21,223 nucleotides of DNA from a virus: positions 1 through 21,223 of the IMG/VR virus record IMGVR_UViG_3300020411_001915. One strand, given 5' to 3'. The translations under genes and the position numbers were made by a program. This document shows positions 3 through 16,900 of the stretch, piece by piece. A model generated the notes under the pieces. That model did not search any database. It saw nothing but the letters and a program-made list of their open reading frames with translations, and was not told the origin of the DNA. Each line of letters opens with the position of its first letter. Within the stretch, counting starts at the first letter, position 1.

Positions 3-1007
3 AATATTAGTATAATTGATGGTGGATCTGGTTGGCAAACACTAGATGCTGTGCCAGATGTGTATATTACCGCCCCCTTAACCACCACAGGTAAGAGAGC
101 AACAGTAACTGCTCAATTTGTAGGCGGTGCGATGACTGGTATTCAGGTAACTGACGGAGGATCTGGGTATTCTTCCTCATCTCCACCACAGTTACAGATA
201 AGAAATGTGCACAAGGTAGTGGATCGTACCATAGATAACGGTGCATATAGATCAACATATGCGGATGATATAAGAACATATCTACTTTCTTTACCAGAAG
301 GTGACTCAGTATCAACTGCTGCTACGTTAAGAGCTCTAGAAAATCTACCTGAGAACTTTTTTGATCAATATAAGGTAGCAGACTTCAGTGTTAAGGGTGA
401 TCCAAACGCTCAACGTGTTAGAAAAAAGGCTCAAAGGATGTATAGTGACACTGCTACAAACCCATTAAGGGAATCCAATAGAATTGATGACTTAGATATG
501 AGTGTAGTAGACAATAGTACTGTAATACCTACGGAATTAAAGGATACTCTTAGGCAATATCTCCGTGATGAGAACCATAGAAGTAGAATGCAGCATATAG
601 ATGATATAACACAAAAGATTATTCCCGAATATAGTAACCATGATGAGCGTTATGTTACTACTATACAGGGTAGAATTAGTGAATTACCTCATGCGTCAGA
701 GTATACTAAGTACATGATGAAGCAATATAGACCCGATCCTCAAGATAGTATAGATATTAATATAACATTATCATGTAGTACCGTGGAAAGTGGGTGTGGG
801 CATATCACATGTCCTGCACCTCCAGGATCATCTCCTGGTCCATACCAGTCATTTTCTATGTCTGGGTTACTTGGAGATGGATGCAAACCGTGGACTGCGT
901 CGGGAACGATGAAAGTGTGGAATGATTTGACCAGAGCTAATGCAGCATGGTCAGCTGCAATAGCAGCATACGGAAACCCTTACGATACAGGAATGTATTT
1001 ACCCTAA
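3..1007 (+). CDS. Virion structural protein with GGSGY repeats, 3' part only
   Basis: The reading frame is open at the left edge, so the gene starts upstream of the window; 334 residues are visible. The GTG at 51 is not a likely start because the coding pattern continues in front of it. The first ~65 residues hold two copies of the beta-rich repeat seen in the giant gene downstream (DGGSGW, then VTDGGSGY followed by a Pro-rich strand). The middle (about residues 75-240) is charged and probably helical, with many Arg, Asp and Glu. The last 90 residues are rich in Gly, Pro, Ser and Cys and end GNPYDTGMYLP. The stop overlaps the start of the PAAR-like gene (TAATG). Position before a spike-tip gene and upstream of gp25/gp6 suggests a baseplate hub or spike-associated protein, but I do not recognise the family. 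I saw no lysozyme motif in the visible part. Confidence 0.7.
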   Translation, partial: NISIIDGGSGWQTLDAVPDVYITAPLTTTGKRATVTAQFVGGAMTGIQVTDGGSGYSSSSPPQLQIRNVHKVVDRTIDNGAYRSTYADDIRTYLLSLPEGDSVSTAATLRALENLPENFFDQYKVADFSVKGDPNAQRVRKKAQRMYSDTATNPLRESNRIDDLDMSVVDNSTVIPTELKDTLRQYLRDENHRSRMQHIDDITQKIIPEYSNHDERYVTTIQGRISELPHASEYTKYMMKQYRPDPQDSIDINITLSCSTVESGCGHITCPAPPGSSPGPYQSFSMSGLLGDGCKPWTASGTMKVWNDLTRANAAWSAAIAAYGNPYDTGMYLP

Positions 1008-1546
1008 TGGCAATAGGAGCAGCGTTATTTAAAGGCAATTGTAGCGGTCATGGCACTGGTAGCGGATCTATGCACCATCCAGGACTAGGTGGAGGAACAC
1101 TTGGTGGATGCCCTCACTCACCAACAGCAGGGCAAATTGTTGCTTGTTCAGTAGCACAGATGGATGCTGTTACAACTTGGAAGCCTACTGAGCAAAAACC
1201 TAGACAAAAGTTAGAAAGGAGTGTTATAATAAACAACAAGATCCCTATCATAGATAGAGATGAGCTTGTTCTACACCCTACTAAAACAAAACACAAAACT
1301 ACTTCCGTTGGCAACAAGTGTTATACCGTCAGATCAAGTCCTGCGTGGCATTGCACGGAGGGTATATCAGGTGGTAGAGAGTCTTCAGAGGGACATCAGC
1401 GTAGATGTTACTCTAGTACGAAGACAGTATGGATTACAGGCAAACTTGCTGGTAGAATAGGTGACGATTTAGGTGAGGATACAACTGAGTGGCCTTGCTT
1501 ATCAACTATCTCAGGTGGGAGTAAAGACGTTTTTATTGGAGATTAA
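1007..1546 (+). CDS. PAAR-like spike-tip protein (T4 gp5.4 role)
   Basis: This 179-residue protein probably caps the central tail spike. PAAR proteins form a sharp metal-bound cone on the gp5/VgrG needle. The C-terminal 42 residues read like a PAAR repeat: TVWITGKLAGRIGDDLG (140-156), then Cys164 and ISGGSKDVFIGD (168-179), matching the family pattern in which a gly-rich turn and 'GS-x-x-VFI-G' close the fold. A less clear copy lies around VIINNKIPIIDRDELVLH (73-90). The N-terminal 50 residues are rich in Gly, His and Cys. In all there are 7 Cys and more than 8 His, candidates for metal binding. I chose the ATG at 1007 because it overlaps the preceding stop (TAATG). The in-frame ATG at 947 would overlap the upstream gene by 60 bases. 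It is longer than simple PAAR proteins (roughly 90-100 residues), so an insertion is likely. Assignment rests on motif reading. Confidence 0.65.
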   Translation: MAIGAALFKGNCSGHGTGSGSMHHPGLGGGTLGGCPHSPTAGQIVACSVAQMDAVTTWKPTEQKPRQKLERSVIINNKIPIIDRDELVLHPTKTKHKTTSVGNKCYTVRSSPAWHCTEGISGGRESSEGHQRRCYSSTKTVWITGKLAGRIGDDLGEDTTEWPCLSTISGGSKDVFIGD

Positions 1547-1548
1547 TT

Positions 1549-1701
1549 ATGCCAAAGTTCAAAAATGGTGGTGCGTGGAGTAATACTGATTACATTATTC
1601 CGCAACCAAAAAAGACTCGTCAAGGAAGAAGTCCTCATACTAAGTTGAGTGCTACTTCACGTAATGCAAAGAAGAAAGCCTATCGAGGACAGGGTAGATA
1701 A
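1549..1701 (+). CDS. Small basic protein, 50 residues, unknown function
   Basis: The ATG lies 2 bases after the PAAR-like stop and is preceded by GGAG at 1538-1541, a good Shine-Dalgarno at normal distance. The stop overlaps the next start (TAATG at 1699-1703). The product has 13 Lys/Arg and only one acidic residue, with Gly, Ser, Asn and aromatic residues (start MPKFKNGGAW; end KKKAYRGQGR). It has no hydrophobic segment, so it is not a membrane protein. The strong charge suggests binding to nucleic acid or to an acidic virion protein. From memory, short basic proteins ending in a similar YRGQG motif occur in T4-like marine phages, which I cannot verify here. Its tight fit between two coupled genes with its own ribosome binding site is the main argument that it is real. 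Confidence 0.72.
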   Translation: MPKFKNGGAWSNTDYIIPQPKKTRQGRSPHTKLSATSRNAKKKAYRGQGR

Positions 1702-3158
1702 TGGGCATTATTAATCAGAAAAAGAACCCTGACAGAGAATTTAAATCCTCTGTTGTACAAAGGGAGGGTAATTCTGGTATTGCTGATGAATCATATGATT
1801 ATAGAATACCTAAAGGTGTTCCACCAGTACCAAGAGCATCAATACCAAGAGATGATACACAAAGAGAACCTGCAAATTGGTATTTGAATCCAGAAGAGTC
1901 TTCTAGACCCATTGTCCCTCATGTTGGTGGGTGGATGGAGAAGAAACTAAGTGGGGAGCAAATGAAGTTCCTTTGGGATATGATTGGTAAGAAGAGAGAA
2001 AGTTGCGGTTATATGCTTGCTGGTCATGTGATGGATAGTTTCTACCTTGACGATGAGGGAGATTATTTTTACACAAACGTCTTGGATCCATTGATGCAAG
2101 AGTATATCCATAATTTTGGTAATCCAGGAGATAAAATAGCAGTTAATAACTTACATCCTTATTGTTTACATAGATGGTGGGTAAATTATCAGCGTCAAGG
2201 TGAATATAACCCTACTCATGACCATACTGGGTGTTTTAGTTTTGTTGTTTGGATGAAAATTCCGTTTACTAATGAGGAACAGAACGAAACAGGTGATACT
2301 GAGCAAGTTCAAATTGCTAAAAGAGCAGGATTAAATTCGGGTCATGCTTCAAATGGAAATTTTGAATTCCATTACACTGATATTTTTGGTGCTAATCATT
2401 CATTTTGGTATGATATGGGACGACCATTAGAAGGTACTATGCTTCTATTCCCATCAAATTTCAAACATCAGGTATATCCATTTTTTAATAATGATGAATT
2501 TAGAATTTCTATATCTGGTAATATTGTTCTTAACACCAATACAAGAATACCTGTAGAAATGAATACGGATATAGCTGACTTGATGGATAAGGATAAATTG
2601 GAGAGAAATAATGTTAGTACTGGTACTTCTATAGTATCTCTACCAGAACATACAGGTAAGAAAATTGGTGAATATCATTATCCACCATATAATGATGTTA
2701 ATGAGATATTATTTAATATCATACAAGATTTGGGACCTGGTAATACAGGAGTAAATCCTGAAGAAGCACATTGCACAATGACTGACTGGGACTTGTATAC
2801 AAGTCAAGAACATGTTAAAACTATGGTGGATTGGGTTCAAAGAATTATTGATGACCAGTTTAATCCTCCAGAGCATGATTTTAAGACAGTAGAGACATGG
2901 GCGGTTACATATAAGGAAGGTGAAGACATAGACTGGCATAGTCATGGAATTAGTTGTTATTCCTTTGTTTATTATGTTAATGTTCCAGAAGGATCATCAC
3001 CCTTGCTATTTCAGAACCCAGAGGGTATAATAGATCCAAGACCAGGTAAGGTAGTTATTTTTGAAAGTAGAATGAAGCACAAGGTTCCACCTAATAAGTG
3101 TAATGGTAGATGTGCTATATCAGGCAACATTTTCCTAAAAAAACATAAAAAATTATGA
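1701..3158 (+). CDS. Two-domain 2-oxoglutarate/Fe(II)-dependent oxygenase
   Basis: The 485-residue protein holds two fused double-stranded beta-helix oxygenase domains. This class uses O2 and 2-oxoglutarate to hydroxylate a substrate, with Fe(II) held by two residues of an HxD/H motif and a distal His, and an Arg binding 2-oxoglutarate. Domain 1: H173-D-H175, distal H256, R268. Domain 2: H413-S-H415, distal H460, R470. Both end with a matching strand, RISISGNIVL and RCAISGNIFL, so they look like a duplication. The HxH form followed by 'SFV' resembles the phage subfamily I associate with Pfam 2OG-FeII_Oxy_5. Domain 1 has about 83 residues between metal ligands against 45 in domain 2, indicating an insertion near residues 190-240. 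Residues 1-75 are polar and Pro-rich, probably disordered. The start overlaps the preceding stop and the stop overlaps heme oxygenase (ATGA). Substrate unknown. Confidence 0.85.
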   Translation: MGIINQKKNPDREFKSSVVQREGNSGIADESYDYRIPKGVPPVPRASIPRDDTQREPANWYLNPEESSRPIVPHVGGWMEKKLSGEQMKFLWDMIGKKRESCGYMLAGHVMDSFYLDDEGDYFYTNVLDPLMQEYIHNFGNPGDKIAVNNLHPYCLHRWWVNYQRQGEYNPTHDHTGCFSFVVWMKIPFTNEEQNETGDTEQVQIAKRAGLNSGHASNGNFEFHYTDIFGANHSFWYDMGRPLEGTMLLFPSNFKHQVYPFFNNDEFRISISGNIVLNTNTRIPVEMNTDIADLMDKDKLERNNVSTGTSIVSLPEHTGKKIGEYHYPPYNDVNEILFNIIQDLGPGNTGVNPEEAHCTMTDWDLYTSQEHVKTMVDWVQRIIDDQFNPPEHDFKTVETWAVTYKEGEDIDWHSHGISCYSFVYYVNVPEGSSPLLFQNPEGIIDPRPGKVVIFESRMKHKVPPNKCNGRCAISGNIFLKKHKKL

Positions 3159-3832
3159 CTTTATCAACTAGATTAAAAGAAGGTACTAAGAAATCTCACA
3201 ATGCAGCAGAAAATACTAAATTTATTGCTGGATTCCTTAAAGGAGTACTAAACCCAGAAGAGTACCGTAAACTAATTACGGACTTTTATTTTGTCTATGA
3301 GACAATGGAGGAAAGGATACAGGAAACTAAAGATCCTCTAGCAAGTACATTGAAACAATGGGGTGCGAAATTATTCCGTACTGCATTTCTTAATAGAGAT
3401 CTTAGGTATTACTATGGTCCTATGTACAGGAGTATGATGACACCATCAGAAGCTTGTAACACATATTGCTATAGACTTAATGAAATTGCAGAGAAGGATC
3501 CATATCTTCTTATAGCACATCATTATACTAGGTATATTGGTGATTTATCAGGTGGTCAAATACTTAAGGGTATTGCTAAGAAGGCGTTAAATCCCCCTGA
3601 AGGAGAGGGATTACACTTTTACGACTTTCCTATGATAGATGATGCAAAGGCGTTTAAAACCGATTATAGAGCAGTTCTAGATGGGTTAGAAGTTAATGAG
3701 CATCAGGTTAATACATTGATTACTGAAGCAAACTATGCATTCAGACTTAACATGTATATTTTTGATGAACTTCAGGGAGATGCTAAAAAAGGACTACTTA
3801 AAGTACTCTGGGCAACTATTACTGGAAAATGA
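3155..3832 (+). CDS. ho1: Heme oxygenase (biliverdin-producing)
   Basis: The 225-residue protein cleaves heme with O2 and electrons (ferredoxin in cyanobacteria) to biliverdin IX-alpha, CO and Fe2+. It is soluble and all-helical. The proximal heme ligand is His15 in KKSHNAAEN. The distal helix carries YTRYIGDLSGGQILKG (124-139), whose GDLSGGQ is the family hallmark. Tyr and Arg in YAFRLNMYIFDEL (194-206) match the conserved C-terminal helix. Length is close to cyanobacterial HO1. The ATG overlaps the upstream oxygenase stop (ATGA) and its own TGA overlaps the next ATG the same way. I see no Shine-Dalgarno ahead of it, so it is probably translated by coupling. ho1 is a known auxiliary gene of cyanophages, where biliverdin feeds phage bilin reductases; no such reductase lies here. 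What is unusual is the position between 2OG oxygenases inside a baseplate gene run. Confidence 0.94.
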   Translation: MTLSTRLKEGTKKSHNAAENTKFIAGFLKGVLNPEEYRKLITDFYFVYETMEERIQETKDPLASTLKQWGAKLFRTAFLNRDLRYYYGPMYRSMMTPSEACNTYCYRLNEIAEKDPYLLIAHHYTRYIGDLSGGQILKGIAKKALNPPEGEGLHFYDFPMIDDAKAFKTDYRAVLDGLEVNEHQVNTLITEANYAFRLNMYIFDELQGDAKKGLLKVLWATITGK

Positions 3833-4425
3833 AAGGCACTTTAGCTAATTTGTATCCAACTCCAATATATTGGGTGGAGAAAGTTGATAACTTTAATGAA
3901 ATACAGAATGAAATTACTACAGCATTAAAAGAAGTTGAATTTGGAATGAAAGGGGATTGGGGTGCAACCCATTTCCTTTCAGACCCAAGTTTTAAAGATA
4001 ATTTCATTATTAAAAATGATTTAAACTTTTTGAGAGATCAAATTGTATATCATTTAGATCATTATATGAAATCTATAAATTTTCCTCATACTAATGGGTA
4101 TATTGGAAGTTCATGGATTTCTTTATTTAAAAAAGGTAATTATGGACATTGCCATCATCATGGTACTAGTGATGTGTCTGGAGTATACTATTATAAAACT
4201 GATGGATCTGATGGTAACATATACTTTGAAAATCCAACTCCTGCTATGACTTCATCTTTTTGCTACAAAGCTTTATGTGAAAGAGAGCAAATAGTTCCTA
4301 GTAATGGTCTGCTTGCTCTATTTCCTGGTTGGTTGATGCATGGTATAACGACAAATCAGACAAATCATGATAGAATGAGTCTATCTTTTAATATAGTCTT
4401 TGATAGAAACGAGAGCACTTATTAA
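3829..4425 (+). CDS. 2OG-Fe(II) oxygenase, single domain, HxH type
   Basis: The 198-residue protein is a single-domain relative of the two-domain oxygenase upstream. Putative ligands are H109 and H111 within GHCHHHGTSDVSGVYYY (106-122), distal H171 in FPGWLMHGI, and R182 in NHDRMSLSFNI for 2-oxoglutarate. Spacing (H111 to H171, 60 residues) and the 'HG-x-S-x-x-S-[GF]-V-Y-Y' pattern match domain 2 of the upstream protein (HSHGISCYSFVYY), so three of the four oxygenase domains here appear related. The N-terminal LYPTPIYWVEKV is a common opening in this phage group. The ATG overlaps the heme oxygenase stop. The stop is 2 bases before the next start. No signal peptide. The substrate is unknown; candidates are a phage or host protein side chain, or a small metabolite. 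Confidence 0.88.
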   Translation: MKGTLANLYPTPIYWVEKVDNFNEIQNEITTALKEVEFGMKGDWGATHFLSDPSFKDNFIIKNDLNFLRDQIVYHLDHYMKSINFPHTNGYIGSSWISLFKKGNYGHCHHHGTSDVSGVYYYKTDGSDGNIYFENPTPAMTSSFCYKALCEREQIVPSNGLLALFPGWLMHGITTNQTNHDRMSLSFNIVFDRNESTY

Positions 4426-4427
4426 TT

Positions 4428-5138
4428 ATGAAAATCAACGCATATGAACATGGGTTTCCATTCATCATTGTAGATGACTATTTTGATGATGAAGAGATGG
4501 AAATGTTGTGGAATGAGGTCGATAATTTGTATAAAGAGGACATTTTCTTAGATCCAGTCGACTCTTATAGTGCTTTTGATGCGAATGGCTTTCTAAAAAA
4601 CAATAAATGCATCCATTTAGACGAATTTTATGGTAAAAATCGAGAAAAATGTGATATTTTACGCATAAATCGCAAAGTTTTTACAAAAGAGGTCTTACAA
4701 CAGGGAAAAAATTGGTTTTTTACCAATTTTATTAAGACTTGCGACTATGATTCCACATTATTGTCATATTACGAGGGTGACAACTATTATAGAGCACATA
4801 CAGATGCATCAACGGTTACTGGTCTATTTTGGTTCTTTAAAGAGCCTAAACAGTTTAGGGGAGGGGAGTTTATATTTCCTGATTATAAGGTTGATATTGA
4901 AGTAATTAACAATAGAATGATATTTTTCCCATCATTTATTAGGCATCGGGTTTTGGAAGTTTATTTAGATCCAAAATTTGAAGGACAAAATATGGGTAGA
5001 TGGTGTATGACACAATTTTTAGATTCTAAGTCAATGGCCGACATGGAAGAGTCTAAAACTAGAAAGGATATAGAAAAAATGCGATTAAAGAAGGAACAAA
5101 TGGATAAGGATGTAAAAAAGGTTATGTTTAATAGATAA
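4428..5138 (+). CDS. 2OG-Fe(II) oxygenase, prolyl-4-hydroxylase-like
   Basis: The 236-residue protein has the classical HxD...H...R arrangement: H124-T-D126 in YRAHTDAS, distal H173 in FIRHRVLEV, and R191 in GRWCMTQFL. GGEFIFP (145-151) is the conserved strand between the ligands. The N-terminus (FIIVDDYFDDEEMEML) is typical of prolyl-4-hydroxylase-like phage enzymes. It therefore belongs to a different branch from the other three oxygenase domains here. After the fold, residues 203-236 are highly charged (MEESKTRKDIEKMRLKKEQ) and probably form a helix or coiled coil for binding a partner. The gene begins 2 bases after the preceding stop, and ends the tightly coupled run; its stop codon lies inside a late promoter motif. 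A perfect 9-bp inverted repeat (4708-4716/4722-4730) lies within the coding sequence, possibly by chance. Confidence 0.87.
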   Translation: MKINAYEHGFPFIIVDDYFDDEEMEMLWNEVDNLYKEDIFLDPVDSYSAFDANGFLKNNKCIHLDEFYGKNREKCDILRINRKVFTKEVLQQGKNWFFTNFIKTCDYDSTLLSYYEGDNYYRAHTDASTVTGLFWFFKEPKQFRGGEFIFPDYKVDIEVINNRMIFFPSFIRHRVLEVYLDPKFEGQNMGRWCMTQFLDSKSMADMEESKTRKDIEKMRLKKEQMDKDVKKVMFNR

Positions 5139-5141
5139 ATA
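5134..5141 (+). promoter_or_regulatory. T4-type late promoter motif GATAAATA
   Basis: GATAAATA fits the NATAAATA late promoter consensus described for T4-like cyanophages (TATAAATA in T4). It includes the TAA stop (5136-5138) of the oxygenase gene. T4 late promoters need only this -10 element, read by the phage sigma (gp55) and the sliding clamp. Transcription would start around 5147, giving a leader of about 20 bases before the ATG at 5167. It faces the small gene, gp25, gp6 and the giant gene, which are expected late genes. I saw no other clear match at gene junctions in the window. Confidence 0.55.
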
Positions 5142-5165
5142 ATAAAGACGTATACCGTCTTTATT
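5141..5165 (+). terminator. Perfect 10-bp hairpin, possible terminator or processing site
   Basis: AATAAAGACG (5141-5150) and CGTCTTTATT (5156-5165) are exact reverse complements around a 5-base loop, TATAC. It fills almost the whole 28-base space between the oxygenase gene and the next ATG. The right arm is T-rich (TCTTTATT), but the stem is only 30% G+C and no uninterrupted T run follows, so it is a weak candidate for factor-independent termination. RNA starting at the overlapping late promoter would begin inside the left arm and could not form the full stem; read-through RNA from upstream could. It may thus end, protect or process the upstream message. Confidence 0.5.
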
Positions 5166-5166
5166 C

Positions 5167-5391
5167 ATGAGTGATCCCATTATATTCAAAAGTATAGTAC
5201 CAAGAGGAAGCTCTGTAGGACCTACTACAGAGGAAATGGAGGCAGCTTATAATAAGACGGATGGAAAGGGTGTGGCAAATAGACCTGTTGATATGTCTGA
5301 AGAATTCCGAAAGAATGGTTGGGAACACTGTAAATATCTAATTACAGACCCAAGAAGTGACTATTATCTTAAAAAAAGGGAAGGTGAATAG
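5167..5391 (+). CDS. Small conserved-context protein, 74 residues, unknown
   Basis: The product is hydrophilic and slightly acidic (many Glu, Asp and Lys), with no membrane segment and one Cys. Notable stretches are IIFKSIVPRGSSVG near the start and FRKNGWEHCKYLITDPRSDY near the end. The ATG at 5167 follows the hairpin directly and has no visible Shine-Dalgarno. The stop overlaps the GTG start of gp25 (TAGTG), so the two are translationally coupled. Position at the head of the gp25-gp6 run suggests a baseplate or assembly role. It is far too short to be a full gp53. I do not recognise a family. Confidence 0.75.
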   Translation: MSDPIIFKSIVPRGSSVGPTTEEMEAAYNKTDGKGVANRPVDMSEEFRKNGWEHCKYLITDPRSDYYLKKREGE

Positions 5392-5816
5392 TGGCATTAA
5401 AACCAATAACAGGAGCAGAATTAACCAAAGATAAATCTAGAAGTTTCGCTGATGTTAATATCGCATTTTCTAAAAATAGGTTTACTGATGATTGTTCAAA
5501 GGTAACAAATGCAAATGCAATCAAACAAGCTATTAAAAATCTAGTTTTAACTAGACCAGGAGAAAAATTATTCAAGAGTAATGTTGGTAGTGGAGTATAT
5601 CAAAGACTATTTGAACAGTTAGATCCCTTTACACTAGATACAATACAAGGTGAGATCATAAATACCATTAACCAATATGAATCTAGAGTGCAGCTTCTAA
5701 GTTGCAAATTAACTCCATTTTATACTGCAGGTAAAGTTTCAGTAACCGTTAGATATAAGGTTGTTGGATTGCCTATTACCGAGTCTATATCATTCGTATT
5801 ACAGAGACCTAGTTAA
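5391..5816 (+). CDS. 25: Baseplate wedge protein gp25
   Basis: The 141-residue protein matches T4 gp25 (132 residues) in size and layout and belongs to the GPW/gp25 family. gp25 starts sheath assembly on the baseplate and links the inner wedge to the sheath initiator ring. The conserved core is AIKNLVLTRPGEKLFKSNVG (47-66) followed by SGVYQRLFEQLDPFT (67-81), where the Arg-Pro-Gly-Glu turn and the following Asn-x-Gly-x-Gly are family hallmarks. The C-terminal half is alternating beta strands, as expected. The start is GTG at 5391, overlapping the upstream stop, with a purine-rich site (GGGAAGG) shortly before it. The gene ends directly against gp6 (TAA immediately followed by ATG). Confidence 0.92.
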   Translation: MALKPITGAELTKDKSRSFADVNIAFSKNRFTDDCSKVTNANAIKQAIKNLVLTRPGEKLFKSNVGSGVYQRLFEQLDPFTLDTIQGEIINTINQYESRVQLLSCKLTPFYTAGKVSVTVRYKVVGLPITESISFVLQRPS

Positions 5817-7841
5817 ATGCAACCGAATAAGTTAACAGCATTAGACTTTGAAGATATCAAAGCTTCTATAAAATCATATCTGAGAACTAGAGATGAGTTT
5901 ACAGATTATGACTTTAATGGATCCACATTATCATATCTCGTTGATGTTTTAGCGTACAATAGCTATTATTCTGCATTTATGTCTAATATGGCAATGAATG
6001 AAGTATTTTTGCCATCATCTACAATTAGAGATAATGTTGTTAATATTGCTAAACTATTAAATTATGTTCCTAGATCAATTACATGTGCTAAAGCATGTGT
6101 GATGTTGGAAGTACAGACATCTCAAACTAATCAGGCATATCCTAGTTCAGTTACCTTAAAAAGAGGACCAGTTGCAAGAGGTAGTAATTATATTTGGAAT
6201 ATTTTAGAAGATATTACAGTAGAGGTTGATACTGTAACTGGTAAAGCAACATTTCCTTCAGTTACTATTAATGAAGGGTCTATAATCAATTTTTCGTATA
6301 CTGTTAATACTTTCCAGACTCAAGAATATAAAATCCCTTCTGAAGACGCTGATATAGAAACTTTAAGAGTTACAGTTAAAGCTAACGAATCTTCTACCAC
6401 TTCAGACCTTTATAACATGGTAGAAACTGTTACCAACCTAAGTGGTAATACACGTAGTTACTTCCTCTCTGAAGGCGAGGATATGAGGTATCAGGTAAGA
6501 TTTGGTGATGATAGTATTGGTAGGAAATTGAAAGATGGTGAAGTTATTAATTTTGAATATTTGACTTGTTCTGGAAAAGAAGCAAATGAAGTAACTGGTT
6601 TTGGTTATATTGGAACTATGGAAGATAGTAACAATATAGCAGTAGCTAACTCCGATATTATTCTTCATACTAAACAACGTTCTCAAATGGGTGATGACCC
6701 AGAAACAATAGAATCTATTAAGTATATGGCTCCAAGATTCTATGCTTCTCAATACAGAGCAGTAACAGCACAGGATTACGCTGTTATTACTAAAAATCTT
6801 TATTCTAATGCTGAGTCTGTTGTTGCTTATGGTGGAGATTCTTTAACACCTCCGATATACGGTAAAGTATACGTTGCTGTTAAAACTAAGACTGGATCTC
6901 TTTTGAACGACCAATCTAAGAAGGATTTACAGACAAAATTAAGATCATATTCAATGGCATCTATAGATCCTGTTGTTATCGATCCAGATGAGCTTTATAT
7001 CTATCCTAAAGTCTTTGTTCTTTATGATACTGGTGTAACGAGTAATACTTCTGATATTAAAACAAATATTCAGAATGCTATTAATGATTGGGCTACTCAA
7101 ACACAAATTAATAATTTCAACTCTACGTTTAGAAACCAACAGTTCCAAAAAGCAATTGCTTTAGCAGATAAGGCAGTTAGTGACGTTTCTGTTCAAACTT
7201 CTCTTTTAAAGTATATTAGAGCAGATGCCAACCAGACAAATACTTATTGTATTTCTACTGGTGGTGCTCTTTATAATAGTGCTCCTAGTAATACAGATGG
7301 AACATGTAATAAAGAGCCAGTTATACTTTCTGGAAACTTTAGAACTGCTGATAGACCAGGTATCGATCAATTATTTGAAGATGATGGATTTGGTAAACTA
7401 AAAACATTCTATAATACTGGAAATAAGAAGGTATATACTAATAATACTGCTGGTAGTATTAATTACGATACTGGTGAAATATGTATAGGTCCTATTAATA
7501 TTGTTGGTGCAGGCGATGATGTTCCTGATTCAACAAACATGGATTTAACCGATCCTGTAACAGGAATAGGTACTGTTATAGATCCTACTAAATTACCTAC
7601 GAATTTAAACCTCCCAGTACTCTTTATACCAGGCAATAATACGACAATTCCAGCGTCAACGCCTGGTACTATTATTAATGTAGTTAATCCTGAAGTAACG
7701 GTAGCACCAATTGGAACTATTCCACCTACCACTATCCCTCTAAATAGTTTGACACCACAAACATTTAACCAAACACCAACTTTGGTTGAGGTAACTCAGA
7801 TTACTAATACAGGTGATCCAAACAGCTCGACTTGTTTCTAA
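5817..7841 (+). CDS. 6: Baseplate wedge protein gp6
   Basis: The 674-residue protein is close to T4 gp6 (660). gp6 dimers form the inner baseplate ring that widens during sheath contraction and, with gp7, make the core wedge bundle. The N-terminal region (residues about 25-90: FTDYDFNGSTLSYLVDVLAY, then MAMNEVFLPSS and NIAKLLNYVPRS) is the strongly conserved gp6 segment. YRAVTAQDY (313-321) is the baseplate-J-type motif. Residues ~390-490 resemble the C-terminal dimer region. The last ~120 residues are a low-complexity tail rich in Thr, Pro, Ile, Val and Asn, probably extended, ending in SSTCF. The gene abuts gp25 and is followed after 6 bases by the giant gene. Confidence 0.93.
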   Translation: MQPNKLTALDFEDIKASIKSYLRTRDEFTDYDFNGSTLSYLVDVLAYNSYYSAFMSNMAMNEVFLPSSTIRDNVVNIAKLLNYVPRSITCAKACVMLEVQTSQTNQAYPSSVTLKRGPVARGSNYIWNILEDITVEVDTVTGKATFPSVTINEGSIINFSYTVNTFQTQEYKIPSEDADIETLRVTVKANESSTTSDLYNMVETVTNLSGNTRSYFLSEGEDMRYQVRFGDDSIGRKLKDGEVINFEYLTCSGKEANEVTGFGYIGTMEDSNNIAVANSDIILHTKQRSQMGDDPETIESIKYMAPRFYASQYRAVTAQDYAVITKNLYSNAESVVAYGGDSLTPPIYGKVYVAVKTKTGSLLNDQSKKDLQTKLRSYSMASIDPVVIDPDELYIYPKVFVLYDTGVTSNTSDIKTNIQNAINDWATQTQINNFNSTFRNQQFQKAIALADKAVSDVSVQTSLLKYIRADANQTNTYCISTGGALYNSAPSNTDGTCNKEPVILSGNFRTADRPGIDQLFEDDGFGKLKTFYNTGNKKVYTNNTAGSINYDTGEICIGPINIVGAGDDVPDSTNMDLTDPVTGIGTVIDPTKLPTNLNLPVLFIPGNNTTIPASTPGTIINVVNPEVTVAPIGTIPPTTIPLNSLTPQTFNQTPTLVEVTQITNTGDPNSSTCF

Positions 7842-7847
7842 AATTAG

Positions 7848-7997
7848 ATGGCAAATACGAATAAGGTCTCTCAGTCAGTTAAATCATTAACTCCTGATTT
7901 TATTGAACAGGATTATCCACTGTTTAATAAGTTTATTGAGTACTATTATAGATCTCAAGAAAAGACTGGTCTAGGACAGAATATAGTTAATAATTTC
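7848..7997 (+). other. N-terminal YPLF module of giant protein
   Basis: Residues 1-50 include LTPDFIEQDYPLFNKFIEYY and NIVNNFLQYLDIDKLD (46-61 continues the motif). The pattern 'F-x-x-D/E-Y-P-L-F-x-x-F-x-x-Y-Y' followed by a 'DIDKxD' helix opens many phage baseplate-attached proteins that I know from T4-like marine phages. It is the likely attachment end next to gp6. Recognition is from memory of sequence patterns, not a search. Confidence 0.5.
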
Positions 7998-10900
7998 CTA
8001 CAATATCTGGATATTGATAAACTGGATGTTGGGATTCTTGATGGTGCGACAAAGATTGTAGAACCAATAACTGCCACTGATGATAAGATAATTGTAGAGT
8101 CTGTTGATGATTTCTTAGAGAAGAATGGATCATTATTAATTGGTGATGAAGTAGTATATTACGAAAGAACAACAGCTTCACCTAATATTGCGTTAAGTCC
8201 AGGTATTTCATATGAACAGGTCCAGTTAAAATGGACTGGTCTTGCAAGTCCATTATCACTTTTTGATGGTTCTAGACAGAGATTTCCGTTAACATCACAA
8301 GATAATCCTATTGCTCCACCATCTGCACAGCATTTAATTGTTAAAGTGTATGGTGAATTGCAAGTACCTCTTTTAGATTTTACTGTAGATGGTACTGATA
8401 TTGTCTTTACTCAGCCTCCTAGAACAAAATTGGATGCTGATGACACATCTTCCACTACTATAACATATATGAGTGGTTTTATTGAGAGTCCTATAGTACA
8501 AATTGATAATATATCAAATAGTTTTGGTGATGATAAGAGACAATTTACTATTACTAGGAACAATGAGAGATATGAACCAGTTATTGATGAATATGTTTAT
8601 GCGATATATGACAATCAACTTTTAATACCAAAAGAAGAATTTTATATTGACCACGATCAATTTATATTTAAAAATCCACCTTTAAATGGTAGATATTTGG
8701 AATTATTTGCTGTTGAAGCACCAATTCCTTCTTTTGGTGCTGATGCTGTAGGATATGCTCGTATTAATGATAATGGTGAGCTTACAAATATTTCTACAAG
8801 TGTTAATGGTAATAATTATCGATATGAGTATCCACCAAAAGTATCAATTAATAGTTTAACTGGTAGTGGTGCTTCTGCAACAGCACTTGTTAACGGTGTT
8901 AAAGAAGTTAAGTTATTGGATGGTGGTAAAGGTTATAGTGATACTAATCCACCAACTGTAATTGTTCAAGATCCAACTAAACCTGGTGCGAAAACTGCAG
9001 AAATAACAGCAACAGTCACTAATGGAGAAGTTAGTGGTTTAGAAATAGTTAATTCTGGTAGTGGATATACTTTTACACCTAGATTAACTTTTAAGCAACC
9101 AGGTGGGGCAAAAATAGGCATTCCAACGATGATTGGGGGTTCTATTAGTGGATCTATTGAAGTTTTAGATAAGGGATTTGGATATACAACTGTTCCTGAA
9201 ATATATGTTGATGAACCAACAGGTGAAGATGGTATTAAAGCTTCATTACAGGCAGTAATGGTAGATGGTCAAGTTGAAAGTATTAATATATTAAATTCTG
9301 GTCAAGGGTATGAAACTGTTCCTAGAATAGCAATAAAGGATCCTATAGGTGCTCAAGTATTAGAAACTAAGGTTGATGGTGATGGAAGAGTTGTTTCTAT
9401 TGAATTATTGAGTGGTGGTAGTGGATATGATGATGTTCCTTCTGTATACATCTTAGATGATAGAACAGATGGAACTGGAGCATATGCTGGTGGTACTGGA
9501 GCTACTGCAGTTGCATCAATATTCAATGGTAAAATCATTGATATTAATATTGTTAATTTTGGTAGTGGGTATAGTTCTGAACAACCACCAACAATCTTTA
9601 TTCAATCTCCACCATCCGCAGAAGCTTCTGCTACAGTTGGATTGAATCAGGTTACTGGATTTACAGTAAATCAGAATGGTAGTAAGTATACAAAGGCACA
9701 ATTTGAAGGTTGTGCTAGAGCAGCAAGTGGTATTACTGCATATACTGAAGATGGTAACGCAGTTTTCACAAATGACACTGTTGCAACAGCTGCAGAGGTT
9801 GATACTGCAGTAAAATGCTTAGATCAACTCTTTGTTAAGAGACTTCTTGACAAATATACAGAACAATTCCTTCCAGATGTTCCAAGTTTAGATTATACAA
9901 AGATTGATGTAAGAAATGCTATAAAATCAATTAAAGATTTTTATTCATCTAAAGGTACATCTTTTAGTATTGCATATCTCTTTAAGTTATTATATGGTGA
10001 AACTGTAAGTATTTCTTATCCAAAAGATCAAATTATTAAGCCATCCAACGCTACTTGGTCTATTGACACCATTCTTCGTGCATCTTTAGTTAGTGGTGAT
10101 CCTCGTGATATTAAAGATGGACTTATAGTTCAAGAAGCTGATATTGCTGATCCTAATGTTCAAGCAGCAAGTGCTCTTGTAGAGAATTTTATTTCTATTA
10201 AAACCTCTGAATTAGAGATTTTTGAACTTGTTTTATCCGAAGAAACGATTAATGGTACTTTTACTGTACCTTATAAGACGAGATTAGGTGAGCCTTTAAA
10301 CGAAACTGATAGTATTATTACAGTTGACTCTACTATTGGTTGGCCAGAAAGAAATGGTGAGTTTGTTATTGGTGATAGTGAGGTTGTACAATATAAGGAA
10401 AAATCATTAAACCAGTTTATTGAATGTACTCGTTCTGTTAATGGTGTTGTAGAAGATTGGGATTCTGCTACTGAAGTAAAGTCTAATTTTAGAATTTACA
10501 TTAATAAGGGTACTCTTCAAGAAGTTGTGATGAATATTGTTGGTATCGTTGATGCTCAACAAACAACTTTAACTGATACTGGATCTTACTATCTTCCTGG
10601 TGATAAATTAACAGTTTCTAAGTTGGGTGGTACTGGTGTTGGTCCAGATTTGACAACTTGGTTATATAACGTTAAAAAATTAATTGAAGTTACATCTATC
10701 ACTTATGGTGGTGTTAACAATCAATCTGCTACTGTAACTTGTGCTAATCCTCATGGTCTATTGGTTGGGGATCAGGTTACAATTTATGGTGCTAACCCAA
10801 TCATCTATAACGGATCTTTCCTTGTAACATCTAGAGATGGTGAGTATGTTTTCCAATATAATTTGGTACAACCTGCTACTGTTGAACCACAAGGTAATAT

Positions 10901-13900
10901 TCTTGTATCTATTGACCTTAATAAAGGTAAATCTCTTAATAGTGCTATTTTTAATGCTATTAGTCCTTATACTACAAACGTACAGAACTCATTCTTTAAT
11001 GATGATTATGTATATGTTGCTTCTACAGGTATTCCAAACTATGAAATTGGACCTTTCCCAGGATCTGCACTTCTTCCAGGTAACCAGCGTAAGTTAAATA
11101 GGTTCCCTAAACTTGCACAAACAATTTCAACTAAAGACCTTATTAAGCCTGGTCCTATTGGTACATGGGTTAATGGTGTCTCTATATGGTCTTATAAGTC
11201 AGATTTAAGCAAGACATTTGGTGCTGTAACGAGTATTGATATATTAAATCCAGGTAAAGATTATGATGCTGCTTCTCCTCCAGCAATTACTGTATCTGGT
11301 GGTGGAGGTACTGGAGCAACGGCAGCAGTAACTGTTGATGGTTCTATTAGTGAAATTACAGTTACAAATGGTGGTTCTGGTTATACAACCTCACCATTGG
11401 TCTCTATAGTCGGTGGTAATGGATCTGGAGCTGCTGCTACGGCAATTATCACTAAAGGTGAAGTTTCACGTATTCTAATCAATACTGGAGGTACTGGATA
11501 TACTTCACAACCTTCTATTACTATTGTTGGTGGAGGTGGTACTGGAGCACAAGGTACAGCTTCTGTACGTGGTCCTATTAGATCAATTGATGTTACTAAT
11601 GGTGGTAATTCATATACATCAAAACCTAGCATAGCATTAAGTTCTGGTAGTGGTGCTGTTGCACAAGCTATTGTTAATAATGGAAGAATTATATCTATTG
11701 CTATAATTTCTGCTGGTCAAGGTTATACTACTGCACCTGAAATTACTATTCAAGGTGATGGATTTGGTGCTATAGCAAGAGCAACAATTGATGTTGATGG
11801 TGAAAATGCAGGTAGGGTAACTGGAATTGAGATTGTTAACAGAGGTATTAACTATCTTCAGGGTACTACAGTTATTAATCTAACTTCTGTTGGTCAAGAT
11901 GCTTTATTTGAGTCAAATGTATTTGAATGGACTTATAATTTAGAATCTACTTCTATATTTGACGATGCAAGAGGTGGTGTATTTACTGGTTATAATAATG
12001 AGTATGGTGGTGAATATGCTCATCTATCTAATCCTCAGAGAATGAGATATATTTTAGGTGATAACCTTTATAAAGATGCTTATGGTAAAACTTTAGAAAA
12101 AGAAGATCAGTTAGTACACTCTCCTATTATTGGTTGGGCATTTGATGGTAACCCAATTTACGGTCCTTATGGATATACTGATCCAACTGACCAAGGATCT
12201 GCTGTAATTAGACTTAGCACTTCATTTAGATTGCAAGAAAGTCTTGTATTTGATTCAACTACTAATCCATATCCTGTTAGAAGTGATGGACCTCTTCTTA
12301 CAGATGTAGATGCAAATGGAGATTATTTGTATCCTGCAGGTAAATTTGTTGAAGATTATGAATATGTCTTTGGATTAGGTGATTTAGATCAATATAATGG
12401 TCGTTTTTGTAAGACTCCAGATTATCCAGATGGTAGATATTGCTATTTTGTAACTATTGATGCTACAGAAGATGGTAATGCTTTATTCCCATATGTTATT
12501 GGACCAAGTTATAACTCTGTTGTTGATACTTGGAATCTTTCAACTAGTGCTGTACAGCAAAATATACCTTCTGGTGTTGTAAGATATAGAGATCCTTATG
12601 AAAATGTTGATATTGATGTTGAAAGAACACCAAATGCTTCTACTGCAGCATTAACAACTGAAGATGGTGATATTTTGATGTTTGAGGTGGAAGATGTTAA
12701 CCGTGATGGTGTTATTACTGCTGATGAAACTGCAGATCCTGCTCAAATGTTTGAGGAGTCACCATTACAACTCTTTGATTACTTCCCTAAAGTTAAGTTT
12801 GACTCTAAAGTTGATATTGAAGTTGAAACTATAACTAAGTTTGAAGATGCTTCAGTAACTGGATTTACTATTGAAAACCCAGGTAAGAACTATCAGGTTG
12901 ATGATATACTTACATTTGATAATGAAGGTACTGATGGAGCTGGTGTTTCTGCTCGTATTTCTAGAATTAAGGGTGAAGCTATAGATTCTTATACTTTTGA
13001 GAATGTTAATGGATTGAATTATGGTGTTTTAGACACTAATGTTCCTCATAATTTAGTTGCTGGTGATGAAGTATTCGTAGATTATACTCCTATAATGCAA
13101 AATACGAACAAAACTTTTGTTGTTCGTCAGATTAAAGGTATTGAGTCTATTGTAATTGAACAATCTGGTTCTGGATATGATGAAGAGATTCCACCAACAA
13201 TTATTATTGATGGAGATGGTAAATCTGGTAAGTTAGAAGCAGTAGTTAGTTCTGTAGGATCTATTGATACTGTTAATATTATTAACTCTGGATCAGATTA
13301 CACAACAAGTCCTCGTGTTATATTAAGTCATCCACAGATTTTCAAAAAAGCAGATTATTTTGTAACAACGATATCAAATAACAATTATGTTTCTGTTAAT
13401 GATGTCTATGTTAATGAAGAAAAAGAGACATACTATTGTGGTAAAACAAAAGATGCTACTGGAAATACCGTTGCATTTATATCTAAGCATTCTGCTTTAG
13501 GTGTTAAAGAATGGGAAAGAACATTAGAAAGTACGGATGGTCAATATTATACAGAATTCCAAAAGTTATATGTCAATAAAAATCCATTTACTAATGATGA
13601 AATATGGGTTGTAGGTAATAATAGACCAAATGCAAACCTTTTAGATGTTTATAATCCAGATATTATTCTATGTAAGTATACTCAATCCGAAGATGGATTA
13701 GATGCTACTCTAGATTTCCAAAAGGGATATGCTGGTATATCTGGTGCTAATCGTGCAGATTATGTTACTTGTATTGAGAAATACTCTGATATTCGTTATG
13801 TTATTGGTGGTTATACAAATACAAACTCATTAAACCCTGATGATGCCTTTATAGCATCTATCGACACTACAGGTAATTTTGCTGTTAAGAGAAAGATTGC

Positions 13901-16900
13901 ATCTGGAACTTTATCCGAAAGATTGACGGATATGATAATCATTGAGGATAGTGTCTATTTCATTATGGAAACTGCCTCTGGTCCAGATTCTAAGGATATT
14001 AATGTAGCTTTTGGTAAAGCAACGATTGGTATTAATGCAATAACAATAGATTGGATAAAAGAATTAAGTAATACAGTTTATTCTTTCATAAACACTAGTT
14101 TAACAATAGATGAATTTAATGAATTTTATATTACTGCAACTTGCAGACTTAAGTCTGATGATACTACTAAAGATAGTTTCTGGGTAGGTAAATTAAATAC
14201 TGATGGTAATATAATTTGGAATTATCGTTATCTTGCTACTGGTAGAGAATTAACTCTGGTTGATAATTCTATTATTGATATATTTGGTGATCTTAATGTT
14301 GCATATACAAAAGATGATCAAGTTACTAGAAAAACAACTGTAGGAACTGTTAAGATTGGTTATGATGGTACTATGAAGAAGCATAGTACAAATGAGTTTA
14401 ATCAGAATCAAGTTGAAGGTATTACTGCAAAAGCACTTGCTGTAGATGTATCTGGTGATGTATACATTTACGGTCAAACTCAATGGAATAGAAATGAGTT
14501 TATTTTAGATTTTGATGATGGTGGATCTCCTCTTACTGATCTTGCTTCTCATTATACCATTACAGATCAAAGTGCTAATAATTCTATACGTTATGTGAGT
14601 GGTGTAGCAAAGATTGATGGATGTAATGTACCAGCTAATACTCAAACTACTTGGGAAAATGGTCATATTAAAGCATCTTCTTCTGAATTGGGTACTACAT
14701 TGGATGGAGACTTTACCATTCAGATGATGGTATACATCGATGGAGATTCTGGTCTTCCATTTAGTTTAAGTCAAAATTTAATGACTTTATGTCAGATTGG
14801 TAGTTCTCAGGATCCTACTGGTGGTCTTTGGTTGGGATTTGGTACAGGTCGTGGTTTAGATTTAACAATTGCTAATAGTTCAACTCAACTTGTTAATGCT
14901 ACTGCTATTTCAAGTGCTTCTTCTGTAATGCTTAATAATACTTGGATTTCTGTAGCAATAACTAAGTCTGGGAATTTATTCTCGTCATTTGTTAATGGTA
15001 TTCAAGTAGCTAGTGGAACTATATCAAACACATCATTTGCTGGTAAGGATCTATACTTTGGTGTTGGACCTGGATTTGGTGCTGGTGTTAATGACTTTGC
15101 TAAAGATACACAAGGTCAATTCTATCTTGATGATGTTAAATTAAAGAATAGAGCAATAACTCCTACTTCACCAGCTGATATAAATGGACTTCCACAAGCA
15201 TCTCAGTTTGGTTTTGGTTATTCTTGGACAGATACTGCTTGGTTTGATGCTCAAACAAGAAGATATGAATCTGAAGATTATATTGGTTTTGGTTTAAAAA
15301 TTGATAAAAATGCTGATTCGGATCGTTTAGGTGATCAAGGACTACAAACAAATACACAGATTGGATTTGCAAGGGCAGATATTGCTCCTGTTACTGGAAC
15401 TACTTTAAGTATTGGTAGTACTGGTTTTGAATTAGCAGAAGCAGGTTTCCAATCATTAGACTTTGATGATGCTACAACAACTATGTCTCAGGATACAGAG
15501 GCATTAACTTATGTTGCTGATATTTGGAGTGCTAGAACTTCAACTGTTCCTTCTCCAGGATCTCAAAAATTAAAGGTATCTGCTGTTGTTAAGGATAGGT
15601 ACTATATTAAACCTACATCCACAGTTGTTATTAATAACATACAAGAACTTACTTTAAATCAGTCATTTGATTTTACAGTTGGTGCTAAATTAGTACTTCA
15701 AAATCCTAACGGTACGTTTATTAATAGTGGTTATATTATTAAAAAGGATAATTCTGCTAATAAAATATATCTTGCTATTATTCACAATCCTTGGACTGAT
15801 GATTTGGATAATGGTGAATTAATTACACAACAATTCAGTGAGCAAGATAGTTATGGTATTATTGGTCCTCTTCCAAATGATGTTAATGAAATTAAGAATT
15901 ATGTGTTTACTGAGATTAATAACACAACTCCAGGAACATTTGATATAGATCTTTCTACTTTTGATGCACCTTCTGATGTTGGTGGAACTAATAATTTAGA
16001 TGATTTTGCAAAATTAAAGGAATTTGATGTAAATGACTATTCAATTAGAATAGATGAAGTTTCAGGTGGATCTACATATATTCCTGGATCTGTTGTTGAT
16101 ATTACTTCTAGTGATATAACATTTAATACTGCTTATAGCACATGTCAGATTACCAATTTGGCAGGTGTTCTTAAGATCACTTTAACTGCTAATTTAACAA
16201 AGATTCTTCAAGTTAGTTCTGTTGCTAATACAGATGAAGTATACTGTATTACCTCTACAAGTCATTACTTAAGTAATGGTGAAATGATATATGTTGATGG
16301 TAATCCAGCACAAGAATTTGGTGGAACTACCTATGATGAATATGATGGTGCTTTCCCAGTATTAAATGTTATTAGCCCGTTAGAATTTACATATAAGTTA
16401 GATCAAGCTGCTGTAACTTCTCCTTCTACAATAGCATCTAATGTTGACATATTTGTTAAATCTCCTGTCTTAAAAATGTACAATGGTCATCAATATTTGT
16501 TTGACCTAAGTCACTCTTCAATGGTTGGTGGTAATTTATCATTCTCTAAAGATAATCTTTATAAGTTGGAATATTCATTCAACTCTATTGAAAGAATTGG
16601 TATTCCAGGTGTAACTGGTCAAGGACAACCTACACCTACAGTTAAGTTAAAAATTGATCCAGATATTGTTACTAATATTTCATATTATTTTGATCCTTCC
16701 AGAACTGGAGATGATTCTCCTGTAATTGAAGGTAGTTATCTTGATGTTACAAATTCTCCTTATACAGGTAACTTTGTAATTTCAAGTACTGCTGGTGCAA
16801 CTATTACCGAAGGTGCAGATGTATTCAAATTCCTTCTTGCTAATGAACCTGAAGGTGATGCAAATGTAAATCAGGCATCTTACAGTACAAGTTCTCTAAA

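What the first reader, a model, noticed from the sequence alone, without database searches (positions are those of the whole stretch)
1701..5138. Oxygenase island: four 2OG/Fe(II) domains around a heme oxygenase, inside a baseplate gene run
Four coupled genes encode five O2-using active sites. Heme oxygenase releases Fe2+, the cofactor of the other four. One hypothesis is a coordinated system in which heme breakdown supplies iron for enzymes that hydroxylate phage or host proteins late in infection. The neighbouring PAAR-like tip may also need a metal. Sharing one transcript with spike genes argues for virion modification over general metabolism.
Basis: partly seen in the sequence, partly recalled or inferred. 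Interest (0 to 1): 0.75.

Follow-up and report, generated by a model that had tools for sequence, protein, structure and literature searches.

The report
Heme oxygenase fixed beside phage baseplate
Some uncultured marine cyanobacterial viruses keep a heme-cutting enzyme, usually with iron-dependent oxygenases, at one spot among their tail genes; distantly related versions of the enzyme occupy that spot in related viruses, and it most likely helps make bile pigments rather than modify the virus particle.

Summary
Genes at 1701-5138 encode OxyA (two 2OG domains), a heme oxygenase (HO), OxyB and OxyC, coupled end to end after wedge-PAAR genes and before gp25. HO and 2OG oxygenases are each familiar in cyanophages; I found no report of this arrangement. 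In 47 IMG/VR loci anchored on gp6, all 33 with gp6 at least 70% identical to the window carry an HO between PAAR and gp25; none of the 14 more distant ones does. These HOs form three kinds, 25-53% identical between kinds. One clade of baseplate HOs is rejected (p-AU 0.00013), although the gp6 backbones group together (support 87). HO was therefore exchanged, or inserted repeatedly, at one place. 30 of the 33 also have 2OG genes there; the other three have a SET-domain gene.

The closest large relative (179 kb, one HO) carries adjacent pebS- and pcyA-like genes 82 kb away, so bilin synthesis is the best-supported role for HO. Iron supply to the 2OG enzymes and virion hydroxylation are untested. 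A late-promoter motif precedes gp25, so only wedge-PAAR plausibly shares the island's transcript. Three of four 2OG domains show HxH instead of HxD. Verdict: new variant of a known kind.

The parts
3..1007 (+). baseplate wedge-like protein (C-terminal part; the gene starts outside the window)
   Evidence: phrog_719 baseplate wedge subunit, 8.2e-83
1007..1546 (+). PAAR-like tip protein
   Evidence: phrog_281, 1.1e-23; no Pfam match
1549..1701 (+). small basic protein of unknown function (phrog_516), left border of the insertion site
   Evidence: phrog_516, 9e-20; in S-RIM50 the PAAR and 516 homologues are followed directly by gp25, in L270 by an sm74 homologue and gp25
1701..3158 (+). OxyA: fused two-domain 2OG-Fe(II) oxygenase; N domain H173-D-H175/H256/R268, C domain H413-x-H415/H460/R470
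   Evidence: PF13759 and PF13640; motif residues invariant in 11 of 11; two separate adjacent genes in the L053 group
3155..3832 (+). HO: heme oxygenase (type I cyanophage ho1)
   Evidence: PF01126 1.8e-66; solved heme oxygenase 1 1we1 1.3e-53; H15 and GDLSGG invariant in 14 of 14
3829..4425 (+). OxyB: 2OG-Fe(II) oxygenase, H109-H-H111/H171/R182
   Evidence: PF13759 7.6e-18; invariant in 11 of 11; model pLDDT 66.7 matches 2rg4, 3bvc and prolyl hydroxylases
4428..5138 (+). OxyC: 2OG-Fe(II) oxygenase with canonical H124-x-D126/H173/R191
   Evidence: PF13640 6.4e-07; invariant in 11 of 11
5134..5141 (+). T4-type late-promoter motif GATAAATA before sm74/gp25, overlapping the OxyC stop
   Evidence: NATAAATA in the 400 nt before gp25 in 58 of 69 loci, 12.1 expected by shuffling
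5141..5165 (+). hairpin AATAAAGACG-TATAC-CGTCTTTATT between promoter motif and sm74 start
   Evidence: sequence; stem sequence differs but can still pair in the L008 group (pairing read by eye)
5167..5391 (+). sm74: small protein of unknown function
   Evidence: phrog_21449, 4.8e-15
5391..5816 (+). gp25 baseplate wedge, right border of the site
   Evidence: PF04965 3.8e-10
5817..7841 (+). gp6 baseplate wedge, used as backbone marker
   Evidence: PF21379, phrog_219 4.7e-225

Best explanation
The island is an auxiliary gene cassette, probably expressed late, added at the 3' end of the wedge-PAAR gene run in one clade of uncultured T4-like cyanophages. HO most likely opens heme to biliverdin (plus Fe2+ and CO), which the phage's own PebS/PcyA-type reductases and the host turn into phycobilins during infection. 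The three 2OG genes are probably active Fe(II)/2OG hydroxylases with unknown substrates, here because this site collects enzymes (2OG, SET, HO). HO itself seems to be selected at this site: the sampled clade members all keep one there although the HO gene was exchanged for, or arrived anew from, distant lineages. Shown: gene content, intact motifs, conservation, lineage exchange or repeated arrival, single HO copy in the HO-bearing records searched, FDBR genes in some relatives, a late-promoter motif before gp25. Inferred: enzyme activities, timing, bilin use, that selection is for expression at this locus.
For: HO is a full-length PF01126 protein close to solved heme oxygenase 1 (1we1; cyanobacterial by recall) and lies in a phage HO clade. 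The 179-kb relative with the same island (gp6 95% identical) has psbA, one HO, and adjacent pebS-like (68.4% to P-RSM6, 55.0% to P-SSM2) and pcyA-like (54.5% to P-RSM6) genes. A 93-kb record with a type III HO at the site also has an adjacent FDBR pair (G020). Sullivan 2010 (PMC3037559, passages) reports cyanophage ho1, pcyA and pebS functional in vitro. 33 of 33 complete intervals with gp6 at least 70% identical have an HO, 0 of 14 below; types I/II/III 14/11/8. Gp6 backbones carrying it form one clade (SH-aLRT 87, quick tree) while one clade of baseplate HOs is rejected (p-AU 0.00013). Exactly one HO in each of the 17 HO-positive records among 20 searched. Without the island, S-RIM50 has PAAR-516-gp25 in a row.
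Against: The FDBR genes lie about 82 kb from HO in the relative and could not be looked for in the window's own genome beyond its 21-kb record. FDBR was found in only 2 of 16 and 1 of 18 records, most of them fragments, and was absent from an 81-kb record with HO at the site (G019). A pelagiphage has 2OG genes-HO-FDBR beside neck genes in a SAR11 host not known (recalled) to make phycobilisomes, where light harvesting is an unlikely reason. 30 of 33 intervals pair HO with a 2OG gene, which bilin synthesis does not explain. No consensus late promoter was found before the wedge gene in window-type loci, so late timing rests on position. The HO test is on a quick tree with long branches (type III, Mosig).
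Confidence: 0.57

Rival explanations
1. One reading: HO frees Fe2+ from heme and this iron loads the four adjacent 2OG sites, which hydroxylate phage tail or host proteins late in infection.
For: 30 of 33 HO-bearing baseplate intervals also hold 2OG genes, including type III HO with a different PF13759 2OG gene beside it (L246). 2OG-HO adjacency recurs at another site (L020, L024) and in pelagiphage Mosig. Overlapping start and stop codons. A SET-domain gene, also a possible protein modifier, uses the same site.
Against: HO occurs without a clear 2OG neighbour between nrdA and nrdB and after the capsid gene, and 2OG genes abound elsewhere; my hand arithmetic for 3 of 9 HO locations with a clear 2OG neighbour against an assumed 14% gives p near 0.12. 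Type III HO with SET and no 2OG at the site exists (3 of 33). Nothing shows protein substrates.
Confidence: 0.1
2. General iron or heme salvage: HO frees host heme iron for phage and host Fe enzymes (class I ribonucleotide reductase, photosystem, 2OG enzymes) or clears heme, independent of its gene neighbours.
For: HO lies between nrdA and nrdB in 28 of 80 loci (also P-RSM6). Iron supply has been discussed in print (PMC11480375, section 14). [quoted passage not shown]
Against: The same paper says differences between stations and regions were not large and calls the factors unclear. FDBR genes co-occur in some large relatives.
Confidence: 0.15
3. Tolerant insertion site only: the end of the wedge-PAAR gene run, just before the gp25 promoter motif, accepts any gene, and homologous recombination through conserved flanks swaps contents; neither HO nor 2OG needs to be there.
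For: 2OG, SET, HO or none of these occupy the site in different clades. Small genes between gp46 and gp25 are one of four published hot spots for Synechococcus-phage-enriched genes (PMC3037559, passages). Exchange around HO is visible: window versus L006 OxyA dS 1.60 but HO dS 0.18.
Against: A neutral site should sometimes lose HO; the 33 intervals of the clade (19 clusters of gp6 at 98%) all keep one, through lineage exchange or re-arrival.
Confidence: 0.18

Closest known systems
Cyanophage ho1 (auxiliary heme oxygenase of P-SSM2, P-HM1, P-RSM6 and others)
   Same: Same PF01126 family and same phage clade; the large relative also carries pebS- and pcyA-like genes.
   Different: None of the 11 named phage records whose HO context I read (P-RSM6, P-HM1, P-SSM2, S-SSM6a, MED4-213, AG-345-F15/-L05/-P14/-D19/-E02, Mosig; D19 seen on one side only) has it at the PAAR-gp25 site; they have it between nrdA and nrdB, near psbA, by neck genes or elsewhere.
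hemO-pcyX and alaS-hemO-FDBR cassettes of marine and freshwater phages (PMC11480375)
   Same: Phage heme oxygenase linked to bilin reductases; iron supply is mentioned there too (passages and section 14).
   Different: In the 179-kb relative the FDBR pair is about 82 kb away and the neighbours of HO are 2OG genes.
Cyanophage 2OG-Fe(II) oxygenases (phrog_81, phrog_61; TIGR02466/PF13759 and PF13640 families)
   Same: OxyA and OxyB match phrog_81, OxyC phrog_61; Pfam domains.
   Different: OxyA is a fusion of two domains; TIGR02466 scores of OxyA (55.1) and OxyB (56.8) lie below that model's cut-off of 62.5.
Pelagibacter phage Mosig EXVC030M cluster (2OG-2OG-2OG-HO-FDBR beside neck genes)
   Same: HO directly after 2OG genes, inside a structural gene run.
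   Different: Neck rather than baseplate site, FDBR adjacent, HO nearest the type III kind (33% to L246), SAR11 host.

Membership tests
Heme oxygenase (PF01126, biliverdin-forming HO1 type) | PF01126 domain over gathering score, full length | tested here: met
   224.3 bits against 23, residues 2-205, profile 2-204 of 204
Heme oxygenase (PF01126, biliverdin-forming HO1 type) | proximal heme-binding His and distal GDLSGG helix motif (roles recalled) | tested here: met
   H15 and G129-DLSGG invariant in 14 of 14; aligned with 1we1
Heme oxygenase (PF01126, biliverdin-forming HO1 type) | turnover of heme to biliverdin | not testable with these tools
   needs an enzyme assay
Cyanophage ho1 auxiliary gene | groups with phage HOs apart from host HOs | tested here: met
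   87 phage rows against 10 host rows (10 of the 80 cellular loci), support 99, tree rooted on the hosts
Cyanophage ho1 auxiliary gene | bilin reductase in the same genome | tested here: inconclusive
   present in the 179-kb relative G001; the window's own record is a 21-kb fragment
2OG-Fe(II) oxygenase superfamily | HxD/E...H facial triad (recalled) | tested here: inconclusive
   met by OxyC; not met as written by OxyA N, OxyA C and OxyB, which show invariant HxH...H, as do solved homologues 3bvc and 2rg4; Asp174 between the two His of OxyA N leaves that domain open; no reliable model of the metal site
2OG-Fe(II) oxygenase superfamily | Pfam domain over gathering score and conserved C-terminal Arg (role recalled) | tested here: met
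   R268, R470, R182, R191 invariant in 11 of 11
TIGR02466 | score over the curated cut-off | tested here: not met
   55.1 (OxyA) and 56.8 (OxyB) against 62.5
T4-like cyanophage baseplate module | wedge-PAAR-small gene-gp25-gp6 order | tested here: met
   same order without the island in S-RIM50 and L270; P-RSM1 has another small gene in place of 516

The most novel reading that the evidence does not exclude
The baseplate locus selects for heme oxygenase activity itself. A clade of cyanophages has replaced its HO at this one position with distant HOs while keeping, and re-pairing with, PF13759 2OG enzymes or a SET protein, because late heme opening (iron, CO or biliverdin) directly serves enzymes that modify tail or host proteins.
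Probability: 0.12. Interest if true: 0.82.

Novelty: new variant of a known kind. Interest (0 to 1): 0.5.

Why it matters
Phage heme oxygenases are usually explained by bilin supply, sometimes by iron; the purpose is still discussed in print. A lineage that keeps an HO at one baseplate site through lineage changes of the gene gives a natural test of what HO is for, and a defined set of 2OG and SET enzymes whose substrates can be sought. If the neighbours modify tail proteins, it would be a route for iron chemistry into virion assembly.

Tried and rejected
OxyA structure: the AlphaFold run on an 11-row alignment failed (mean pLDDT 29.8), so no fold claim is made for it; OxyB gave a moderate model (66.7) and ordinary 2OG matches.

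Phage defence or counter-defence reading: PADLOC gave only generic 2OG models marked as CRISPR-associated for OxyA, OxyB and OxyC and none for HO; dropped.

One vertical HO lineage at the site: rejected by the AU test for all types together and for types I+II (p 0.00013 and 0.00062), but not for type I alone (p 0.44), so no exchange is claimed within type I from the tree.

General HO-2OG linkage outside the baseplate site: counted by hand over nine HO locations (baseplate, nrdA-nrdB, thyX-phoH, after the capsid gene, c62, ndhI-like, c107, psbA side, Mosig neck), assuming about 7% 2OG genes; not significant. Cluster c41 (PF13640 E 0.0076, below cut-off) beside HO at two other sites was counted as weak and left out. 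The names thyX, phoH, capsid and ndhI are my reading of the sequences printed, not search results; nrdA/nrdB likewise, in line with the P-RSM6 annotation.

Late promoter of the upstream gene run: looked for and not found as exact NATAAATA before the wedge gene in L010, L012, L013, L015, L017 and L018; present 30 nt before it in L053.

Literature: ten searches listed no paper that I could see placing HO at the PAAR-gp25 site; only open-licence PMC text was searched, and of the papers only passages or one section were read.

Rows dropped: loci without PAAR/516 in the stretch were not counted (47 of the 73 gp6 loci kept). In one search, 37 of the 87 phage rows were kept with its 10 host rows, and 15 further rows were added. 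The HO loci are the best 80 of 207 matches, so site frequencies among them are biased towards the window's HO.

Full report
What is there. The window is a 21,223-base IMG/VR virus record covering the baseplate region of a T4-like cyanophage: wedge protein, PAAR-like protein, a small gene (phrog_516), the island, a 74-aa gene, gp25, gp6 and a giant open frame. The island holds OxyA (485 aa, two 2OG domains), HO (225 aa), OxyB (198 aa) and OxyC (236 aa), with overlapping start and stop codons or a 2-nt gap. All are over the Pfam gathering scores.

Are the enzymes intact? HO aligns nearly along its length with solved heme oxygenase 1 (1we1, 1.3e-53), and H15 and GDLSGG are invariant in 14 aligned phage HOs. 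In 11-row alignments each 2OG domain has an invariant motif set: OxyA N H173-D-H175/H256/R268; OxyA C H413-x-H415/H460/R470; OxyB H109-H-H111/H171/R182; OxyC H124-x-D126/H173/R191. Only OxyC shows the canonical HxD. The same HxH appears in the solved homologues 3bvc and 2rg4, so it looks like a property of the PF13759 kind and not decay; what metal geometry it gives is unknown here. dN is below dS in each window-versus-relative gene pair with an estimate. The OxyB model (pLDDT 66.7, pTM 0.71) matches 2rg4, 3bvc and prolyl hydroxylases; the OxyA model failed.

Where the island sits. In S-RIM50 the PAAR and 516 homologues are followed directly by gp25, and in L270 by a sm74 homologue and gp25; P-RSM1 has PAAR, one other small gene, then gp25. 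The island is thus an addition between 516 and sm74/gp25. GATAAATA, which fits the cyanophage late promoter NATAAATA (PMC2984593, passages), overlaps the OxyC stop. It is present after the island in 16 of 16 window-type loci that reach this point (window included; L006 is cut off) and in 5 of 5 L053-type loci (there just after HO), and absent in L082. In 69 gp6-anchored or comparison loci, 58 have NATAAATA in the 400 nt before gp25 against 12.1 expected by base shuffling; three of these (L252, L255, L257) lie within the SET gene, and S-RIM50 is among the 11 without it. So gp25 very likely has its own late promoter, and the island is the tail of the upstream gene run. No exact NATAAATA was found before the wedge gene in six window-type loci; the L053 locus has one 30 nt before it. 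Small genes between gp46 and gp25 are one of four published hot spots for Synechococcus-phage-enriched genes (PMC3037559, passages).

Conservation. Of 80 HO loci (the best 80 of 207 matches), 22 have HO at this site, 28 between nrdA and nrdB, 15 by thyX-phoH, 7 after the capsid gene, and 4, 2 and 2 at three further places (gene names by my reading). To avoid sampling on HO I anchored on gp6: 73 loci, 47 with a complete PAAR/516-to-gp25 interval. All 33 intervals with gp6 at least 70% identical contain an HO: 14 OxyA-HO-OxyB-OxyC, 11 OxyA-HO-OxyB (one with an extra 163-aa gene), 5 HO-2OG, 3 HO-SET. None of the 14 with lower identity does: 9 have none of these genes, 4 2OG-SET, 1 SET. The 33 contain 24 distinct gp6 sequences, 19 clusters at 98%.

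Lineage change of HO. The 33 HOs are of three kinds: type I, as in the window (14); type II, 241 aa, 49-51% identical to the window (11); type III, 192-215 aa, 28-33% identical to the window (8). Between kinds, full-length matches to the reference sequences run from 25 to 53%. Type I HOs also sit at this site in the L053 group and L082, whose gp6 is only 72-74% identical. On the gp6 tree all HO-bearing backbones group together (support 87, quick tree) with four changes among type I, II, III and none. On the HO tree, holding all baseplate HOs together is rejected (p-AU 0.00013), also for types I+II (0.00062), but not for type I alone (0.44). So either HO was exchanged in place or HOs of different lineages arrived at the same place. 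Window versus L006 shows local exchange: OxyA dS 1.60, HO dS 0.18. HO-positive records have exactly one HO match (2 of 2; 15 positive among 18), and in G009 the baseplate site lacks HO while HO sits by thyX.

What it does. The 179-kb relative with the same island has psbA and adjacent pebS-like (68.4% to P-RSM6, 55.0% to P-SSM2) and pcyA-like (54.5% to P-RSM6) genes at 154.8-156.1 kb, about 82 kb from HO. G011 (HO between nrdA and nrdB) and G020 (type III HO at the site) also carry FDBR pairs. Cyanophage ho1, pcyA and pebS work in vitro (Sullivan 2010 citing Dammeyer 2008; passages). I therefore take bilin synthesis as the best-supported role. Against this, most records searched show no FDBR (14 of 16, 17 of 18), most being fragments; and pelagiphage Mosig has 2OG-2OG-2OG-HO-FDBR beside neck genes, where light harvesting by phycobilisomes is unlikely. 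Iron supply remains open; PMC9983427 considered it and called the pattern unclear (passages). Host HO was reported among 12 host proteins still made during S-SM1 infection (review PMC10452541, passages).

The 2OG enzymes. 2OG genes are common in these phages: 3-12 PF13640 and 3-14 PF13759 matches in each of seven records (the two lists overlap), and 76 of 153 cyanophages in a review (PMC10452541, passages). Their presence is therefore expected; their steady pairing with HO at this site (30 of 33) is not fully explained. Across nine HO locations, three have a clear 2OG neighbour against an assumed 14% per location, p near 0.12 by hand, so a general link is not shown.

Verdict. Ordinary parts in an unusual, conserved place, with lineage change of HO as the surprising point. 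New variant of a known kind.

Noticed in passing
window 5134-5165 (L008 4160-4190 and others): Late-promoter motif followed at once by a hairpin that ends at the sm74 start; the stem differs on both sides but can still pair in the L008 group (AAAGGGA/TCCCTTT) versus the window (AAAGACG/CGTCTTT).
   Followed up: partly
L069 4469-4756; L252 2512-2796; L082 after HO: A small SET-domain gene (PF00856 for L069 and L252) lies between HO and gp25 in related phages, and with or without a 2OG gene where HO is absent.
   Followed up: partly
window 1701-3158; L053 4651-5433 and 5430-5999: OxyA is a fusion of two 2OG genes that are separate, overlapping neighbours in the L053 group.
   Followed up: yes
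L006, L008 around HO: Mosaic boundaries at HO: L006 HO is close to the window but its OxyA is not; L008 is window-like up to HO and L011-like after it.
   Followed up: partly
L022, L055 and 26 other loci; P-RSM6 (L002): HO sits between nrdA and nrdB in 28 of 80 HO loci, next to the gene of a di-iron enzyme (recalled).
   Followed up: partly
L288 3149-8234 (Pelagibacter phage Mosig EXVC030M): Four genes annotated as 2OG oxygenases, a ferrochelatase, an endonuclease V, HO and a bilin reductase run up to the neck genes in a SAR11 phage.
   Followed up: partly
L063, L064, L067, L074, L081, L083, L084: HO lies shortly downstream of the major capsid gene (by my reading of the sequence) and before a tail protein gene.
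   Followed up: no
window 7848-21221: One open frame of at least 4458 codons with many similar G/Y-rich stretches (GSGYxxxPxV), the likely giant wedge protein annotated as gp7 wedge initiator in S-RIM50.
   Followed up: no
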